Source: Campylobacteraceae bacterium | Lineage (GTDB): Bacteria; Campylobacterota; Campylobacteria; Campylobacterales; BB28 | NCBI GenBank assembly: GCA_016744535.1 | Contig: JADGEE010000027.1 | Coordinates: forward strand, 1 to 33,294 | DNA: 33,294 bases | Direction of reading: 5' to 3' | In this document: positions 770-7,320 of the stretch, piece after piece | Position numbering within the stretch: the stretch's first letter is position 1 | Layout of the letters: each line of letters starts with the position of its first letter | The notes under the pieces: model-generated | Database searches by the model: none | The model's input: the letters and a program-made list of their open reading frames with translations, nothing else | Told to the model about the DNA's origin: nothing | Made by a program: the position numbers and the translations under genes

Positions 770-1549
770 ATGATTTGTATATTTGATTGTGAAACTATTC
801 CTGATGTGGAGTTAGTTAAAAAAGAGTATAAAGTTAGTGGAAGTGATTTAGATATTATTAATCAAGCATTCGAGATTCAAAAAGAGAAGAGTGGTAATAG
901 CTTTTTACCAATTGCTTTTCACAAAGTTGTAACAATTTCAGCAGTTATTACTGATAATGATTTTAATTTTTTAAAAGTTGGCTCATTTCCAAGAGATTTA
1001 ACAGATACTGAAGAAATTGATATTTTGAAAAACTTTTTAGGTTTTATAGATTCTAAAAAGCCAAAATTAGTAAGTTTTAATGGAAATGGATTTGATATAC
1101 CTATGTTATTTTTAAGGGGTATGAAATATAATTTAAGTTGCAAAGCATTTTTTAATAGTGATAAATGGGAAGGTTATCGCTCACGATATAGTGAAAAGAA
1201 AAATTTAGATTTATTAGATTCTCTCGCACACTTTGGAGCAGTTAGAGGTCTTAAACTTGATACTGTTTGTTCTATGTCAGGAATACCTGGTAAATTTGAT
1301 GTATCAGGAAATCAAGTACACGAGCTTTTTTATGAAGATAAATTAAATGAAATTATTGATTATTGTGAAAGTGATGTTTTGAATACATATTGGGTAATGC
1401 TAAAGTATGAGATATTAAAAGGTAATTTAAATTTAGTAAATTATAAAACTATTTTAGAGGGCTTTTTAGAGAAGTTACCACAAAACAAAAATTATAGTGA
1501 AATTTTTACAAATTTTCTAAATAATGAAATTAAAAATTTAAAGGTTTAA
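770..1549 (+). CDS. PolB-like predicted 3'-5' exonuclease (DnaQ fold)
   Basis: This 259-residue protein has the three exonuclease motifs of the DnaQ/DEDDy superfamily. Exo I is DCETIPD with D6 and E8, Exo II is SFNGNGFDIP with D109, and Exo III is YCESD with Y198 and D202. This arrangement and the length match the stand-alone PolB-like exonuclease family (PF10108 type), which has no polymerase domain. It should be a cytoplasmic, metal-dependent exonuclease acting on DNA or RNA ends; the substrate is unknown. The stop is one base before the ATG of the next gene, so it heads a tightly packed run that continues through hisH. An AGG ribosome-binding site precedes the ATG. Confidence 0.85.
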   Translation: MICIFDCETIPDVELVKKEYKVSGSDLDIINQAFEIQKEKSGNSFLPIAFHKVVTISAVITDNDFNFLKVGSFPRDLTDTEEIDILKNFLGFIDSKKPKLVSFNGNGFDIPMLFLRGMKYNLSCKAFFNSDKWEGYRSRYSEKKNLDLLDSLAHFGAVRGLKLDTVCSMSGIPGKFDVSGNQVHELFYEDKLNEIIDYCESDVLNTYWVMLKYEILKGNLNLVNYKTILEGFLEKLPQNKNYSEIFTNFLNNEIKNLKV

Positions 1550-1550
1550 A

Positions 1551-2462
1551 ATGTTAGAGAGAGATATAGGAGAGTTTTCCAAAATTAGATACCAAGCTAG
1601 GGCATATATGTGTTTCTTATTTAATAGAAATATTCCAAATAAATTGCCACTATTTAATATAGATACAGCTATTAAGGGTTTAGAAAAGATTCAAATAGAG
1701 ATTAAAAATTTTAGTGCTTTGTATATTTTAAGTGCTGATGGAATTCAAGTGATTGATAATATCTCTAAAAATCCAAAATCTAGAACAGGAAAATCTGAAA
1801 ATAGAAGCCATAGAGCTTATCATTATCGAGCAGTAAAAGAGAAAAAATGTATTTTAACTGACCCATATCCGTGTGCAATTACAGGTGAGCTAACTGTTAC
1901 AGCATCTTATCCTATTTATAACCAAAAAGGTCAATTACAATTTATTGCGTGTATCGATATAACTATGAAAGAGCTTTTAAAAGTTATTCGACCGGAGGGT
2001 ATGAATATAGTTTTTGAACACTTTAACAAAGTGGTATATTCAGCTTTTGCTTTAGGATTATTTATAGTAGCAACTTTACTATTTTCAAGAGGTGTTGTTC
2101 ATATTATGGATTTTCGTTCAATTAAAATTGAGGGAATATTTGAAGCGACTATTCTTTTAACCCTATCCTTAGCAATATTTGATTTAGTTAAAGCGATATT
2201 TGAAGAGGAAGTGTTAGGAAAACATAATTCAAAAACAGCTGCTTTTGAGATACATAAAACTATGACAAAATTTTTAGGCTCAATTATTATTGCACTAGCC
2301 ATTGAATCACTTATGTTAGTTTTTAAATTTGCAATTACAGGTCCAGAAAAAATTGTATATGCTGTTTATTTGATTGGTGGTGTTACAATGTTACTCTTTG
2401 GACTTACATTTTATATCAAAACTACTTTAAAAGGAAGGGCTAAAGTTGATAGCAATAGTTGA
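1551..2462 (+). CDS. PDC/Cache-like sensor protein with four C-terminal membrane helices
   Basis: A 303-residue protein in two parts. Residues about 35-145 look like a PDC/Cache ligand-binding fold (ALYILSADGIQV, then a TASYPIYNQKGQLQFIACIDI strand pair). Residues about 160-290 hold four hydrophobic segments (about 161-180, 195-218, 241-262, 268-289). There is no signal peptide or N-terminal membrane helix, so the sensor part is predicted to stay in the cytoplasm, unlike classic periplasmic Cache domains. No kinase, cyclase or methyl-accepting domain is attached. The four-helix part loosely resembles PsiE-type membrane domains (weak inference). A paralogue lies at 5422-6279. The 3' end overlaps hisH by 17 bases, suggesting translational coupling. 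Confidence 0.7.
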   Translation: MLERDIGEFSKIRYQARAYMCFLFNRNIPNKLPLFNIDTAIKGLEKIQIEIKNFSALYILSADGIQVIDNISKNPKSRTGKSENRSHRAYHYRAVKEKKCILTDPYPCAITGELTVTASYPIYNQKGQLQFIACIDITMKELLKVIRPEGMNIVFEHFNKVVYSAFALGLFIVATLLFSRGVVHIMDFRSIKIEGIFEATILLTLSLAIFDLVKAIFEEEVLGKHNSKTAAFEIHKTMTKFLGSIIIALAIESLMLVFKFAITGPEKIVYAVYLIGGVTMLLFGLTFYIKTTLKGRAKVDSNS

Positions 2463-3054
2463 TTATAATATGGGAAATCTTGCAAGTGTTAAAAATGCTT
2501 TTGATAAAATCGGTAAAAGTGCAGAAGTTGTATCAGACCCTAATGAGTTAAAAAATTATGATAAAGTAATTCTCCCTGGGGTTGGTGCTTTTGGCGATGC
2601 GATGGAACATTTAAAAGAGTTTAATTTAGATAGTGCAATAAAAGAGTTTGCAAAGAGTGGAAAGCCACTATTAGGGGTTTGTCTTGGAATGCAACTACTA
2701 TTTAACAAGAGTGAAGAGTTTGGCGAAAAAGAGGGATTAGGGTTGATTGATGGTGAAGTTAAATATTTTGATAAATCAAAATTTTCAACTCCTCTAAAAG
2801 TTCCACATATGGGTTGGAACAAAATATTTAAAAAAGATAATCCTCTGTTTAATGGATTAAATGAGAGTTTTTATCTCTATTTTGTGCATAGTTTACATAT
2901 TGAAACAAAAGAGGAAAATATTATAGGAAAAACTTTTTATGGATATGAGTTTGCAAGTGCAGTAAACCAAGATAATATTTATGGAATTCAGCCACACCCT
3001 GAAAAATCACACGAAATAGGGCTAAAAATTTTAGAGAATTTTGTGAAGTTGTAG
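2446..3054 (+). CDS. hisH: Imidazole glycerol phosphate synthase, glutamine amidotransferase subunit HisH
   Basis: HisH hydrolyses glutamine and passes ammonia to HisF, making imidazole glycerol phosphate and AICAR in histidine synthesis. The 202 residues match the family length. The N-terminus IVDYNMGNLASV, the oxyanion strand LPGVGAFG, the nucleophile C79 in GVCLGMQLL, and H184/E186 in IQPHPEKS give a full class I amidotransferase triad. Translation starts at a TTG inside the end of the preceding gene (17-base overlap); an in-frame ATG at 2470 would cut into the conserved first strand. No hisF or hisA is visible; the next gene is an ATPase that begins two bases after this stop. A role with a second HisF in surface-sugar amidation is an alternative that cannot be settled here. 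Confidence 0.93.
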   Translation: MIAIVDYNMGNLASVKNAFDKIGKSAEVVSDPNELKNYDKVILPGVGAFGDAMEHLKEFNLDSAIKEFAKSGKPLLGVCLGMQLLFNKSEEFGEKEGLGLIDGEVKYFDKSKFSTPLKVPHMGWNKIFKKDNPLFNGLNESFYLYFVHSLHIETKEENIIGKTFYGYEFASAVNQDNIYGIQPHPEKSHEIGLKILENFVKL

Positions 3055-3056
3055 AG

Positions 3057-4166
3057 ATGATAAAATACTTTAGTGTAAAAAATTTTTACTCTTTTAGAGA
3101 TGAAGTTAGTTTTGAGTTAGATATAAATAGAAAGGCAAAAGAGACAAATCACGCTTTAATTCTCTATGGCTCAAACGCTTCTGGAAAGACAAATTTATTA
3201 AAAGCTATTTCTTTTCTTTTATTTTTTATTAGAATTTCATTTCAACAAATAGAAAAAAATAGTTTAATGCCATTTGAAGCATTTTTACAAACTAAAGATG
3301 AAAATACAACTTTTTATGTGGAGTTTTTGATAAATGAAAAAATTTATATATATGAGTTAGAATTGAATAGAAAAGAAGTTATAAGGGAAATTTTAAAGAC
3401 AAAAAGGGGAAAAGTTATAGTCCATAGAGAAAAACTCAAAGTAATAAAAGCTATTAGAGGAGAGCGAGAGTTAGAAAAAAATTTAAGAAACAATATTTCT
3501 ATATTATCGTTAGCAAGTAGTTATAATACTCAAAAAGAGATAAATGAGGTATTTAATCTATTTTATTCTAGTCCAAATTTAGGTTATAAAAATCAATTTA
3601 AACTATCTAAAGAAGAGTTAGTTAAAAATGCGAAAGATATTATAGAACTCAATTTCAAAGATAAAGTTTTAGAGTTGCTTAAAATAGCAGATACTGAAAT
3701 TATTGATTTTAAATTAATTCCTGAAAATGAACCTGAAGAGATATTTTTTTATCATAAAAGTGAAAATGGAGAAATAAAGATTGAAGCTGATTTTGAGAGT
3801 GATGGGACAATAAAACTGTTCAATTTTAGTTTACATTTAATAGGTTTATTAAAATATGGAGGTATTTTAATATTAGATGAAATAGATTCAAAACTCCACT
3901 TTAAAATAGTTAAATATGTAATTGATATGTTTAAAAATTCAGAGAAAGCTCAATTAATATGCTCATCTCATAATCCTTGTATTATAAATAACTTTTCAAA
4001 AGAGACTTTATGGTTTGTAGAGAAAGAGAATAGTGTGAGTAAACTATATTGTGCAAATGATTTCGAAGAGTTAAAAAAAGATAAAAGCTTAAATTTAGAA
4101 ACTCTATATAAAATCGGTAGATTTGGGGCAGTTCCAAAAAGCTTTTATCCAAATGAGGAAAATTGA
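3057..4166 (+). CDS. RloA-type AAA/ABC-like ATPase, probable phage-defence component
   Basis: This 369-residue cytoplasmic ATPase has the N-terminal FSVKNFYSFRD strand typical of SMC/RecF-like AAA_15/AAA_21 proteins. It has Walker A GSNASGKT (38-45), a signature-like SDGT (248-251), Walker B ILILDEID (270-277) and an SSHN switch motif (303-306). It ends with YKIGRFGAVP, a conserved tail of ATPases paired with RloB or TOPRIM partners. The next gene is such a partner and overlaps by one base (TGATG). Comparable pairs include RloA/RloB first noted in Campylobacter jejuni restriction loci, lactococcal AbiL, and more distantly the PARIS ATPase. In these systems the ATPase is thought to sense infection and license the partner. 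The defence role here is inference from family and pairing. Confidence 0.82.
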   Translation: MIKYFSVKNFYSFRDEVSFELDINRKAKETNHALILYGSNASGKTNLLKAISFLLFFIRISFQQIEKNSLMPFEAFLQTKDENTTFYVEFLINEKIYIYELELNRKEVIREILKTKRGKVIVHREKLKVIKAIRGERELEKNLRNNISILSLASSYNTQKEINEVFNLFYSSPNLGYKNQFKLSKEELVKNAKDIIELNFKDKVLELLKIADTEIIDFKLIPENEPEEIFFYHKSENGEIKIEADFESDGTIKLFNFSLHLIGLLKYGGILILDEIDSKLHFKIVKYVIDMFKNSEKAQLICSSHNPCIINNFSKETLWFVEKENSVSKLYCANDFEELKKDKSLNLETLYKIGRFGAVPKSFYPNEEN

Positions 4167-4714
4167 TGGCTAGAGGAGATAGAGGTACAAAAAAGTTAAA
4201 ATCATCTATTCCATACTTTATAGTTGAAGGGTGTACAGAAGAGAATTATATAAAAGTTTTAAAAAAGCTATATAGAAAAAGTGCGAAACTTAAAAATATA
4301 GAGGGAGGAAGTGCTAAAAATATTTTAACTCAAGCTGAAAAAATTATCAACGATAACTCTGAATACTCAAATTTTATAGTTTGGTTTGACGATGATACAT
4401 TAACACCAAATGATACAAATTTATTAAATCAAGTAAAACAACTTACAAATGTTAATGTAGTTATCTCTTACCCTTGTATAGAAACATTTTTATTAGCACA
4501 TTTTCAAAAATTAAATGAAAATCAATTAAATAATAGTTGTAAATCGTTTGAAGATAAATTAAAAAAAGATTATATGTTAAATTACTCAAAAAATAATTGT
4601 AAATTGTTAGAGAAATCTATTAAAATAGAGAATATAGAAAATTTAAAAATAAATTGCTCAAAATATGTAAATAATTTCGATAAAATTTTTAAGTTTTTTG
4701 AAAAGATGTTATAA
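4166..4714 (+). CDS. RloB-like TOPRIM-fold protein, probable effector partner of the upstream ATPase
   Basis: A 182-residue protein of the RloB family (PF13707 type). Visible family marks are IVEGCTEENYI (E21, E25) early, WFDDDT with D75/D76/D77, and SYPCIETFLLAHF (101-113), the RloB signature usually written as NPcFExWLLxHF. The E and DxD layout resembles a TOPRIM nuclease centre. I place the start at the ATG at 4166, which overlaps the ATPase stop in TGATG; a TTG one codon earlier is less likely. It should act with the ATPase as a two-gene abortive-infection-like unit, possibly as a nuclease. The C-terminal 60 residues are Asn/Lys-rich and low in recognisable motifs. No restriction-modification genes flank it. 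Confidence 0.8.
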   Translation: MARGDRGTKKLKSSIPYFIVEGCTEENYIKVLKKLYRKSAKLKNIEGGSAKNILTQAEKIINDNSEYSNFIVWFDDDTLTPNDTNLLNQVKQLTNVNVVISYPCIETFLLAHFQKLNENQLNNSCKSFEDKLKKDYMLNYSKNNCKLLEKSIKIENIENLKINCSKYVNNFDKIFKFFEKML

Positions 4715-4730
4715 TTATCCGTATAATTAT
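4710..4730 (+). promoter_or_regulatory. Promoter and repeated palindrome in front of the toxin-antitoxin operon
   Basis: The self-complementary octamer ATAATTAT occurs twice, at 4711-4718 and 4723-4730, centres 12 bases apart, so both copies face the same side of the helix. Each copy overlaps a TATAAT hexamer (4710-4715 and 4722-4727). The first overlaps the stop codon of the RloB-like gene. This is a plausible autoregulation site for the Phd-type antitoxin, covering the -10 region (inference). Confidence 0.5.
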
Positions 4731-4754
4731 ATTTAATATTTCAAAGGATATAAA

Positions 4755-5051
4755 ATGGTGTCTTATGCACAAAATGAGTTAGTATCATCAACTGATATAT
4801 CAAAACAGTTTGGACGCTATCTTTCAAATGTTTCAAATCATGAAGTTGAAAAATTAGCAATTTTAAAAAATAATAAAATAGAAGCTGTTATTTTACCGAC
4901 TGATATTTATGAAAATTTAATAAATCTACTCGAAGAGAAAGAGGATTTAGAAATTTTAAAAACTCTTGAAAATAGATTAAAGACACCAAAAGATAAGTAT
5001 CTTGATGGAGATGAAGTTTTAAAAGAGTTAAATTTATCTTTAGATGATTAA
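4755..5051 (+). CDS. Phd/YefM-family antitoxin
   Basis: A 98-residue protein whose first half fits the Phd/YefM fold: VSSTDISKQFGRYLSNV, then KLAILKNNKIEAVILPTDIYENL, where the AVILP-x-x-Y-E stretch is characteristic. The acidic C-terminal part (from about residue 55, DEVLKELNLSLDD at the end) would be the disordered segment that wraps the toxin. It is expected to neutralise the RelE-type toxin encoded two bases downstream and to repress the shared promoter, where a doubled palindrome is visible. An AAAGGA ribosome-binding site lies about 8 bases before the ATG. Its place directly after the RloA/RloB pair makes it part of a small defence or stability cassette. Confidence 0.88.
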   Translation: MVSYAQNELVSSTDISKQFGRYLSNVSNHEVEKLAILKNNKIEAVILPTDIYENLINLLEEKEDLEILKTLENRLKTPKDKYLDGDEVLKELNLSLDD

Positions 5052-5053
5052 TT

Positions 5054-5347
5054 ATGTATAACTTTAAATTTCATCCAGAAGCTAAAAAAGAGTTACAAAA
5101 ATTGAATAACTCTATTCAATTACTTTTTACAAAAAAGTTAAAACAGGTTTTAAAATTTCCTGAAATAGGTGAAAACTTAGGTAACAAAAACCATTTAAAT
5201 TTATCAGGATTTAAAAAAGTATATTTCAATAATAAAAAATATAGAATAATCTATCAAATAATAGAAAATGAAATTTTAATTCATATTATAGCTGTGGGTA
5301 AAAGAGATGATATGGAAGTTTATAAAAAAGCCAATAAGAGGATATAA
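5054..5347 (+). CDS. RelE/ParE-superfamily toxin
   Basis: A 97-residue basic protein with the compact RelE/ParE layout. It has YNFKFHPEAKKELQKL at the N-terminus, a helical hairpin, then YRIIYQIIENEILIHIIAVGKRDDMEVYKKA, the central strand pair and C-terminal helix typical of RelE/YoeB-like ribosome-dependent mRNA interferases. R76-type and K75-type basic residues in AVGKRDD fit the active face, but ParE-like gyrase inhibition cannot be excluded by eye. It starts two bases after the antitoxin stop, the usual antitoxin-first order. Complete and apparently intact. Confidence 0.87.
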   Translation: MYNFKFHPEAKKELQKLNNSIQLLFTKKLKQVLKFPEIGENLGNKNHLNLSGFKKVYFNNKKYRIIYQIIENEILIHIIAVGKRDDMEVYKKANKRI

Positions 5348-5421
5348 AAATGGGAAAACAGTAAAATTAATTTTTTAGAAGAAACCACAATTTCGATAAA
5401 ATTTTGTATTAAAGGATTTCA

Positions 5422-6279
5422 ATGAAAGAGATTTTACAAGTTTATAAAAATAATAGAACAACTATTGAAAACTTTCTATTAACGACAATTAATCAATCTT
5501 TGTCTAGTGAAAAATTGAGTGATAATCTTGCTAATTATTTTAATATTTTACCTGCACTTGAAGTTACTTATGCAATTGATGCCGAATTTATTCAATTAAC
5601 ACCCTATATCTATAAAAATAAAATTAATGATTCAATGGTTGGTGTTAGTAAATATTACCTATTTGAAAAAGCAAATTTTGGAGATAATAAAACTTTTATT
5701 AGCAACTCATATATAAGTTCACGAAGCGGTAAATTATGTGTCACAATTGCTAGAGAAATTGAGGGTAAATTTATTGTATTTGATTTTAATTTAATAGATT
5801 TAATGGAAAAAATGAGATTGATTGAAAATAATAGATTTTTAGATAAATTAGTAAAAGTAGTTTATGCTTTTATTGGATTTGCACTTATGGCATTCGCTAT
5901 ATTTTTAACGCTTTATGCTGGTGCAATTTTTGTAAAACTACTTATACATATCAATAATATTGAGATTCAAGATATATTTAAATCTGTAATAGCTTTAACT
6001 CTTGGACTTGCGATATTTGATTTATCAAAAACAATATTAGAACAAGAGGTTTTTTATAAGAGTTTTGAAGAGAATGAGACAAAAGTTTTTGGTAAATTTA
6101 TGATTTCAATTATAATCGCTTTATCTATTGAAGCTTTAATGGTTGTATTTAAAATTGCCCTATATAACTATCACGATATGATTTACGCTTTATATTTAAT
6201 TTTAGGAATTTCATTTATGATAATCGCACTAGGGCTATTTTATTACAATACTAAAATTAGAGGTGAGAAAAATATATAA
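5422..6279 (+). CDS. Second PDC/Cache-like sensor protein with four membrane helices (paralogue of 1551-2462)
   Basis: This 285-residue protein repeats the plan of the gene at 1551. It has a soluble N-terminal part of about 145 residues with no signal peptide, then four membrane helices and a short basic tail. The membrane part aligns clearly: TLGLAIFDLSKTILEQEV against TLSLAIFDLVKAIFEEEV, and SIIIALSIEALMVVFKIAL against SIIIALAIESLMLVFKFAI. The sensor halves are much more diverged, suggesting different ligands. An AAAGGA ribosome-binding site precedes the ATG. No output domain is attached, so signalling would have to pass through the membrane helices or a partner. The two copies bracket hisH, the RloA/RloB pair and the toxin-antitoxin operon. 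Function unknown. Confidence 0.7.
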   Translation: MKEILQVYKNNRTTIENFLLTTINQSLSSEKLSDNLANYFNILPALEVTYAIDAEFIQLTPYIYKNKINDSMVGVSKYYLFEKANFGDNKTFISNSYISSRSGKLCVTIAREIEGKFIVFDFNLIDLMEKMRLIENNRFLDKLVKVVYAFIGFALMAFAIFLTLYAGAIFVKLLIHINNIEIQDIFKSVIALTLGLAIFDLSKTILEQEVFYKSFEENETKVFGKFMISIIIALSIEALMVVFKIALYNYHDMIYALYLILGISFMIIALGLFYYNTKIRGEKNI

Positions 6280-6285
6280 ATAGAA

Positions 6286-7320
6286 TTAATCCTCTCTTAC
6301 TTCTCTTACCTCTTTTATTACATTATCTTTCTTTTTACCAAATATGAACTCTTTTAAATCATCGTATTCTCTTTGAGATAAAAATCTATGTTTACCAGTT
6401 GGTAGATTATTTAGCTCAATTCCTCCAAATGCAACCCTTTTTAAATCTGTAATTTCTCTCTCAAAATTTGCAAAAAATCGTCTTAATTCTCTATTTTGTC
6501 CCTCTCCGATAACAACTCTAAGCCTTGAATACTCTGGGCGGTTTTTAAGGATTTGATAAGCATAAAATGGAGCAATTGTCATTGATGTAATTTTTGTATC
6601 TTTATGAGCTCCAGCTGTTCCGTGTATCTCTATTCCATTTTTCATAGCATTTTCCATATCTTGAGTAACAAGTCCATTTATTTTGATATTATAAACTCTC
6701 TCTAACTTACTCTCCATAAGTTTTGTAGCAATTTTTGGATTATCAGTTAAAAGTAAAAGTCCCTCACTTGCAAAATCTAATCTTCCAACAGGAATAAAGT
6801 GTCTATATTTTGTAGCTAATGAGTGATAAATTGTCTTTCTACCTCTATCATCTTTTTTAGTTACAAGCTCACCTTTCTCTTTATTATAAACTAATACTGT
6901 AAATAAATTATCCATTCTTTTTACAAATTGACCATTCACATAAACTTTATCGTATTTATCAACTTTAGTAGATAGATTTGTAACTATTTTATTCTCAATA
7001 GTTACTTTACCTTCTGCTATTAATACATCAGCTTCACGACGAGAATATTTTGTACTATGAGATATAAATTTATTTAATCTTATCTCTTCAAGTTCCTCTT
7101 TTTTATTTCTTCTTACTTTAGTAACATTCTCTTTAGCATCTTTTTTTAGACCTTTATGAACATTACCTTTCATATCATTTCTAGCTTTTCTTAAATCTTC
7201 TATTTTAATATTACCACTTCTATTTTTTGCTTCTTCCTCTTTGATATTTTTTCTTTTAATTTTAGCAACTTCTTCTTTTTTGATGTTTTTATTCATTGCT
7301 TTTTTGATATTGTTTTTCAT
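6286..7320 (-). CDS. rluB: RluB/RsuA-family 23S/16S rRNA pseudouridine synthase with long basic N-terminal extension
   Basis: Residues about 80-135 form an S4 RNA-binding domain (RLNKFISHSTKYSRREADVLIAEG). The catalytic domain follows with VLVYNKEKGELVTKKDD and the signature FIPVGRLDFASEGLLLLT, where D182 is the expected catalytic aspartate. RluB makes the pseudouridine in helix 89 of 23S rRNA in E. coli; RsuA or RluE-type specificity is possible. The odd part is residues 1-79, a Lys/Glu/Arg-rich stretch with loosely repeated NIKKEEVAK, NIKEEEAK and NIKIEDLRK units, absent from typical short members. It may be an RNA- or ribosome-contacting tail. The ATG at 7320 is in frame throughout. Convergent with the preceding gene, six bases apart. 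Confidence 0.85.
   Translation of the reverse strand: MKNNIKKAMNKNIKKEEVAKIKRKNIKEEEAKNRSGNIKIEDLRKARNDMKGNVHKGLKKDAKENVTKVRRNKKEELEEIRLNKFISHSTKYSRREADVLIAEGKVTIENKIVTNLSTKVDKYDKVYVNGQFVKRMDNLFTVLVYNKEKGELVTKKDDRGRKTIYHSLATKYRHFIPVGRLDFASEGLLLLTDNPKIATKLMESKLERVYNIKINGLVTQDMENAMKNGIEIHGTAGAHKDTKITSMTIAPFYAYQILKNRPEYSRLRVVIGEGQNRELRRFFANFEREITDLKRVAFGGIELNNLPTGKHRFLSQREYDDLKEFIFGKKKDNVIKEVREVRED

What the first reader, a model, noticed from the sequence alone, without database searches (positions are those of the whole stretch)
3057..4714. RloA/RloB-type ATPase plus TOPRIM-like pair translationally coupled behind hisH
The ATPase has intact Walker A and B and the GRFGAVP tail, and the partner has the EGxTE, DDD and SYPCIETFLLAHF marks of RloB. 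The junction is TGATG. The ATPase starts two bases after hisH with no promoter room, so a defence-like pair rides on a housekeeping transcript. RloA/RloB genes were named from C. jejuni restriction loci and similar pairs appear as AbiL, but here no restriction genes are present. A stand-alone, constitutively co-expressed form would be new in this context.
Basis: partly seen in the sequence, partly recalled or inferred. Interest (0 to 1): 0.7.

Follow-up and report, generated by a model that had tools for sequence, protein, structure and literature searches.

The report
Defence gene pair behind hisH
A probable virus-defence gene pair sits directly behind a histidine-synthesis gene in a Campylobacterota genome, and related genomes repeatedly carry different defence genes at that same spot, which suggests the histidine operon is a recurring docking place for bacterial immune genes.

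Summary
A complete RloA-type ATPase (3057-4166) and an RloB-type TOPRIM protein (4166-4714, overlapping stop/start) lie 2 nt behind hisH, with catalytic motifs intact. They match PADLOC AbiLi/AbiLii and Pfam AAA_21/RloB. "Stand-alone RloAB would be new" is wrong: about 40 RloAB loci in this order are nearly all free-standing pairs, with restriction genes (by motif) near one. The position is the real find. Across the order hisH is normally followed at once by hisA. In this genome hisA lies on another contig, and the sister species has neither the pair nor the break. Elsewhere in the order the same hisH|hisA junction holds other defence-type genes: a type IIG restriction enzyme that overlaps both his genes (1 genome); a type II methyltransferase behind hisH, with the hisH 3' end duplicated (1 genome); and, in one large family, ATPase + TOPRIM pairs of another subfamily (28 loci, 27 genomes, 6 genera). 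Those cassettes have a conserved ATPase 5' end, a hypervariable middle and freely swapped TOPRIM partners. Best reading: an AbiL/RloAB-type abortive-defence pair, acquired horizontally, occupying a recurrent defence slot in the his operon and probably expressed by read-through. Defence function and expression are inferred, not shown.

The parts
2446..3054 (+). hisH (imidazole glycerol phosphate synthase glutaminase subunit), the host gene in front of the pair
   Evidence: TIGR01855 2.4e-71; 84% identical to sister species G001
3057..4166 (+). rloA / abiLi-type AAA_21 (ABC-type) ATPase, 369 aa
   Evidence: AAA_21 4.6e-32; AbiLi 1.8e-66; Walker A/B, signature and H-loop intact
4166..4714 (+). 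rloB / abiLii-type TOPRIM protein, 182 aa from ATG 4166, start overlaps rloA stop
   Evidence: PF13707 5.8e-17; AbiLii 1.2e-12; E21, D75, D77, E106, H112 conserved
3052..3059 (+). hisH stop / rloA start junction (TAG-AG-ATG), no room for a promoter
   Evidence: sequence
4755..5051 (+). Phd/YefM-like antitoxin next to the pair
   Evidence: PF02604 2.3e-4, below the curated cut-off; strong -35/-10-like site at 4698-4727 in front of it
5054..5347 (+). ParE/RelE-like toxin
   Evidence: PF05016 1.8e-10
770..2462 (+). exonuclease-like gene and PDC-sensor gene, the order's usual upstream neighbours of hisH; they show that the hisH side of the operon is ancestral
   Evidence: same arrangement in L050, L055, L063, L067

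Best explanation
The two genes are an RloA/RloB (AbiL-like) ATPase + TOPRIM-nuclease pair, most likely an abortive-infection defence. The ATPase is inferred to hold or license the nuclease until a phage cue releases it, and the nuclease then stops growth by cutting nucleic acid, by analogy with PARIS, whose TOPRIM subunit AriB cuts host tRNAs. The pair arrived by horizontal transfer and sits at the hisH|hisA junction, separated from hisA in this lineage. In this order of Campylobacterota that junction is a recurrent slot for promoterless defence cassettes: RloAB here, PDC-M38/AbiL-like ATPase+TOPRIM pairs in another family, a type IIG restriction enzyme in a third, a type II methyltransferase (convergent) in a fourth. 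A co-directional cassette there would be expressed by read-through from the his operon. SHOWN: gene identities, intact motifs, junctions, patchy distribution, displaced hisA, recurrence at the junction, module swapping between the related cassettes. INFERRED: defence function, nuclease target, read-through expression, and that the window pair belongs to the same phenomenon as the other cassettes.
For: Families and motifs. RloB is patchy: 36 of 299 genomes and 25 of 81 genera of the order, absent from sister G001; contexts of about 40 loci nearly all differ, and rloA almost always directly precedes rloB. Closest RloB found is in the gammaproteobacterium Ca. Marithrix at 50% identity, while the window's own phylum gives at most 39%: horizontal transfer. 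Outside family f5, hisA follows hisH within 300 nt in 67 of 79 genomes; of the 12 exceptions, 4 hold one conserved housekeeping-type gene, 3 hold defence genes (the window, G057, G031) and 5 are unrelated rearrangements. G000 hisA-cheY-prmA-ftsH is on contig C91 behind moeA; sister G001 has hisA 3 nt after hisH. G057: type IIG enzyme (PADLOC 1.3e-190) overlaps hisH and hisA by 4 nt each. Family f5: ATPase(+TOPRIM) between hisH and hisA in 28 loci (27 genomes, 6 genera); 26 of 27 such ATPase ORFs seen in 970 kb of hisH neighbourhoods lie in the slot; 20 of the 22 matches of 200 bits or more in 120 genomes sit beside hisH. ATPase N-terminus 87% conserved, middle 36-38%, ATPase-middle versus TOPRIM identity correlation 0.05, and one pair with ATPase middle 99% but TOPRIM 36% identical.
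Against: No experiment on this pair. The window RloA is a different subfamily from the f5 slot ATPases (4e-6 to their profile), so only the position links them. In the window hisA is not downstream, so insertion is inferred from relatives rather than seen as hisH-X-hisA. No duplicated hisH 3' end was found in the window or near hisA. Some non-f5 exceptions at the junction are ordinary genes. F. nucleatum AbiLii was toxic in E. coli but its AbiLi did not neutralise it, and lactococcal AbiLii was not toxic (PMC3985639), so the toxin/keeper model is not settled for AbiL.
Confidence: 0.62

Rival explanations
1. An ordinary horizontally acquired RloAB/AbiL defence pair that happened to land, through a random rearrangement, behind hisH; the cassettes at the same junction in other families are unrelated coincidences.
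For: The window ATPase is a different subfamily from the f5 cassettes; hisA is displaced and no att-like repeat is visible; 5 other genomes have hisH followed by unrelated genes after rearrangement.
Against: Four different families of the order have defence-type genes directly behind hisH, with 3 distinct system types; start spacing is mostly operon-like (2 nt, overlap of 4 nt, about 10 nt); 20 of 22 strong f5 ATPase matches are at this one junction.
Confidence: 0.3
2. The pair is not defence but a housekeeping or regulatory ATPase-nuclease co-opted with histidine synthesis (for example growth control under amino-acid stress).
For: Tight coupling behind a biosynthetic gene; an archaeal OLD-family ATPase (Cran1) is reported to act in the cell cycle rather than in defence (PMC12796447, abstract).
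Against: Patchy presence, absence in the sister species, transfer signal from a distant class, nearly all relatives in unrelated contexts, hypervariable ATPase middles and replacement of the cassette by restriction enzymes at the same junction.
Confidence: 0.05
3. Assembly error: hisH and rloA were joined wrongly.
For: Draft assembly with 174 contigs.
Against: Both breakpoints (hisH|rloA in C15, moeA|hisA in C91) lie well inside contigs, reading frames are intact on both sides, and comparable junctions occur in other assemblies.
Confidence: 0.03

Closest known systems
AbiL (AbiLi/AbiLii, Lactococcus) and the RloA/RloB genes of Campylobacter jejuni restriction loci (Pfam RloB PF13707)
   Same: Two-gene ATPase then RloB order, overlapping genes, same protein families (PADLOC AbiLi 1.8e-66, AbiLii 1.2e-12).
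   Different: Chromosomal, directly behind hisH, no restriction genes nearby; short RloB (182 aa) lacking the C-terminal part of the family profile.
PARIS (AriA/AriB)
   Same: Separate ABC-type ATPase and TOPRIM nuclease genes; AAA_21 ATPase (AriA model 1.2e-32).
   Different: The TOPRIM partner is RloB, not AriB; the best ATPase model is AbiLi, not AriA. Trigger and target are not testable here.
PDC-M38 / AbiLi-like ATPase + DUF3226-type TOPRIM cassettes between hisH and hisA in family f5 of the same order (this work)
   Same: Same genomic junction, same ATPase-then-TOPRIM arrangement, same orientation behind hisH.
   Different: Different ATPase subfamily (AAA_15 type) and other TOPRIM families; hisA still directly downstream there.
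Insertion with long target duplication of restriction-modification genes (Nobusato et al. 2000, cited in PMC3874152)
   Same: Relative G031 shows an RM module behind hisH and a 120-nt, 97.5% identical extra copy of the hisH 3' end before hisA.
   Different: No such duplication in the window.

Membership tests
RloA/RloB = AbiL-type pair | AAA_21-type ATPase gene directly followed by an RloB (PF13707) gene | tested here: met
   AAA_21 4.6e-32, AbiLi 1.8e-66; RloB 5.8e-17 (cut-off 31.5 bits, scored 63)
RloA/RloB = AbiL-type pair | Intact ATPase motifs and TOPRIM acidic residues | tested here: met
   Walker A/B, signature, H-loop; E21, D75/D77, E106, H112
RloA/RloB = AbiL-type pair | Full-length RloB domain | tested here: inconclusive
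   profile 1-152 of 195 only; closest relative (Marithrix, 175 aa) is equally short
RloA/RloB = AbiL-type pair | Phage protection / abortive infection | not testable with these tools
   needs experiment
RloA/RloB inside a restriction locus (the original C. jejuni context) | hsd or other restriction genes adjacent | tested here: not met
   none in the window; 1 of about 40 order loci
PARIS (AriA/AriB) | AriB-type TOPRIM partner | tested here: not met
   partner matches RloB/AbiLii only
OLD (single-chain ATPase-TOPRIM) | ATPase and TOPRIM in one protein | tested here: not met
   two separate genes
hisH|hisA defence slot of this order (defined here) | defence-type gene directly behind hisH, same strand, operon-like spacing | tested here: met
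   2-nt gap
hisH|hisA defence slot of this order (defined here) | hisA immediately behind the cassette | tested here: not met
   hisA is on contig C91 behind moeA

The most novel reading that the evidence does not exclude
The hisH|hisA junction of the histidine operon is a dedicated, long-lived and combinatorial immune locus in Campylobacterales. Promoterless ATPase-TOPRIM cassettes (with restriction enzymes as alternatives) are swapped in and out by homologous recombination through the conserved his flanks and the conserved ATPase 5' end, with sensor (ATPase middle) and effector (TOPRIM) exchanged independently, all expressed from the his transcript. The window's RloAB pair is one occupant.
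Probability: 0.5. Interest if true: 0.8.

Novelty: new variant of a known kind. Interest (0 to 1): 0.62.

Why it matters
Defence genes are usually found in islands, prophages or integrative elements with their own promoters. A fixed slot inside a core biosynthetic operon would couple immunity to a housekeeping transcript and give a simple way to find new systems: read what lies between hisH and hisA. In one family, about a third of readable loci carry an ATPase-TOPRIM cassette there, with independently assorting sensor and nuclease parts. That is a natural experiment on which ATPase part recognises the phage and which TOPRIM part does the killing, a question open for AbiL/PARIS-like systems.

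Tried and rejected
Profile search of the PDB found no RloB structure and only weak matches for RloA (PtuA, retron ATPases, AriA at 1.5e-4). tblastn of RloB against plasmids and phages and scans of viral contigs for RloA and RloB found nothing, so carriage on a known phage or plasmid is unsupported. Promoter scan: matches inside hisH are only 9 of 12 and the scan as a whole is only mildly above shuffled expectation (66 versus 51 +/- 8); an internal promoter is neither shown nor excluded. Target-site duplication of the hisH 3' end in the window: none. A second contig of G117 with a diverged hisH 3' end (76%) was first read as a duplication; it is more likely a second strain in the assembly. The 0.9-kb insert in family f8 is one conserved epimerase-like gene (assigned by eye), not defence. 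Remnants of cassettes in 'empty' slots were clear in only 2 of 35.

Full report
What is in the window. The ATPase matches AAA_21 (4.6e-32) and, best of all PADLOC models, AbiLi (1.8e-66); the second protein matches Pfam RloB (5.8e-17) and AbiLii (1.2e-12); neither has an NCBIfam assignment above cut-off. Aligned with relatives, all ATPase motifs and the TOPRIM-type residues (E21, D75, D77) plus E106 and H112 are present, so both genes look functional. Behind them is a Phd/ParE-like toxin-antitoxin pair with its own promoter-like site.

Is a stand-alone RloAB new? No. RloB occurs in 36 of 299 sampled genomes of the order, in 25 of 81 genera. In about 40 loci examined, rloA almost always directly precedes rloB, neighbours differ nearly everywhere, and only one locus has a restriction-type gene by motif. 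The lactococcal AbiL is a free two-gene system, and RloB was linked to AbiLii and OLD-type TOPRIM domains before (PMC10440598). Unusual here is the spacing: the 2-nt gap to the gene in front is the tightest of about 30 rloA loci (next 21 nt, most 50-300 nt).

Where it came from. The sister species G001 (hisH 84% identical; assembly 88% complete) lacks the pair. The closest RloB found is in Ca. Marithrix, a gammaproteobacterium, at 50% identity, where it stands beside a polyphosphate-kinase-like gene (named by eye) and a second RloA-like gene; within the window's own phylum the best identity is 39%. This points to horizontal transfer. No phage, plasmid or viral-contig relative was found.

The hisH|hisA junction. 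Across the order the usual arrangement is (exonuclease)-(PDC sensor)-hisH-hisA-cheY. Outside family f5, 67 of 79 sampled genomes have hisA within 300 nt of hisH; G001 has hisA 3 nt behind hisH. In the window's genome hisA-cheY-prmA-ftsH is on another contig behind moeA, so the ancestral junction was opened and RloAB now follows hisH. Of the 12 non-f5 genomes without adjacency, four (family f8) share one conserved housekeeping-type gene there, five are ordinary rearrangements, and three have defence-type genes directly behind hisH: the window; G057, where a 1128-aa type IIG restriction enzyme-methyltransferase (PADLOC 1.3e-190, Eco57I 2e-39) overlaps hisH by 4 nt and hisA by 4 nt; and G031, where a convergent type II methyltransferase (1.1e-153) follows hisH and the last 120 nt of hisH recur at 97.5% identity in front of hisA, with a decayed third copy between. 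The last pattern resembles the published insertion of restriction genes with long target duplication (Nobusato et al. 2000, cited in PMC3874152).

A whole family uses the junction. In family f5 (120 genomes searched) an ATPase, usually with a TOPRIM-like partner, sits between hisH and hisA in 28 loci from 27 genomes of six genera, among about 84 readable loci; the rest have hisA directly or within 300 nt behind hisH, apart from a few rearrangements. The three of these ATPases scanned match AbiLi (PDLC02336) and PDC-M38A at 1e-42 to 1e-48; their partners match PDC-M38B or DUF3226 or nothing, but most partners carry EGxxDxxF and DxD motifs. Among 167 hisH neighbourhoods (970 kb) 26 of 27 such ATPase ORFs are in the slot, and of the 22 genome-wide matches of 200 bits or more 20 are beside hisH. 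Caveat: the profile was built from slot members, but the genome-wide search used a single sequence. The ATPase has a nearly invariant first 42 residues, a hypervariable middle (36-38% mean column identity) and a conserved Walker B/H-loop end. ATPase-middle and TOPRIM identities do not correlate over 231 pairs (r = 0.05): two genomes of one genus share a 99% identical ATPase middle with TOPRIMs only 36% identical, while one of those TOPRIMs is 73% identical to that of another genus whose ATPase middle is 15% identical. Tandem cassettes (L172 of G117; C238 of G574), truncated cassettes (L266, L270) and two relics were seen.

How it most likely works. By family knowledge and analogy with PARIS, where the ATPase keeps the TOPRIM nuclease AriB until triggered and AriB cuts host tRNAs (AriB cleavage: PMC12409363; the keeper role is from general knowledge), RloA is the sensor/keeper and RloB the effector that stops growth of an infected cell. 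This is inference: for AbiL, one AbiLii was toxic in E. coli but not neutralised by its AbiLi (PMC3985639), whereas related AAA/TOPRIM pairs did behave as antitoxin and toxin (PMC10440598). With 2 nt between hisH and rloA and no terminator predicted there, read-through from the his transcript is the simplest expression route; an internal promoter in hisH is not excluded.

Verdict. The pair itself is a new member of a known kind. The new element is its position in a junction that several lineages of the order have filled, apparently independently, with different defence-type genes, one family extensively and combinatorially. The link between the window's pair and the f5 cassettes is positional only: the ATPases are distant (4e-6), and in the window hisA no longer follows.

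Noticed in passing
L172 (G117:C66) 3800-6904; L173; L223, L226, L230, L231, L234, L236, L238, L240, L245, L247, L252, L259, L280: Mosaic ATPase + TOPRIM cassettes between hisH and hisA in family f5, with conserved ATPase 5' end, hypervariable middle and freely assorting TOPRIM partners; two tandem pairs in L172.
   Followed up: yes
L177 (G057:C148) 3511-6897: Type IIG restriction-methylation enzyme embedded between hisH and hisA with 4-nt overlaps on both sides.
   Followed up: yes
L174 (G031:C57) 3978-4097 and 6059-6229; L175 3739-3620: Three copies of the hisH 3' end around a type II RM module, like insertion with long target duplication or an attachment site.
   Followed up: partly
window 4755-5347: Phd/YefM-like and ParE-like toxin-antitoxin pair right behind rloB, with an 11-of-12 sigma-70-like site at 4698-4727 overlapping the end of rloB.
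   Followed up: partly
window 1551-2462 and 5422-6279: Two paralogous membrane proteins (33-34% identical; the first has a PDC sensor domain) flank hisH-rloAB-TA; of the two genomes searched only this one has both.
   Followed up: partly
L038 4829-7755: In Ca. Marithrix the RloAB pair is followed 12 nt later by a second RloA-like ATPase without its own RloB.
   Followed up: no
L122 (G080:C58): Behind hisH, on the opposite strand: patatin-like and dynamin-like genes (by eye), possibly another defence cluster; hisA not found downstream.
   Followed up: no
L071 2613-3203 (G000:C91): Methionine/glycine-rich MSGMGG repeat protein with a masked stretch.
   Followed up: no
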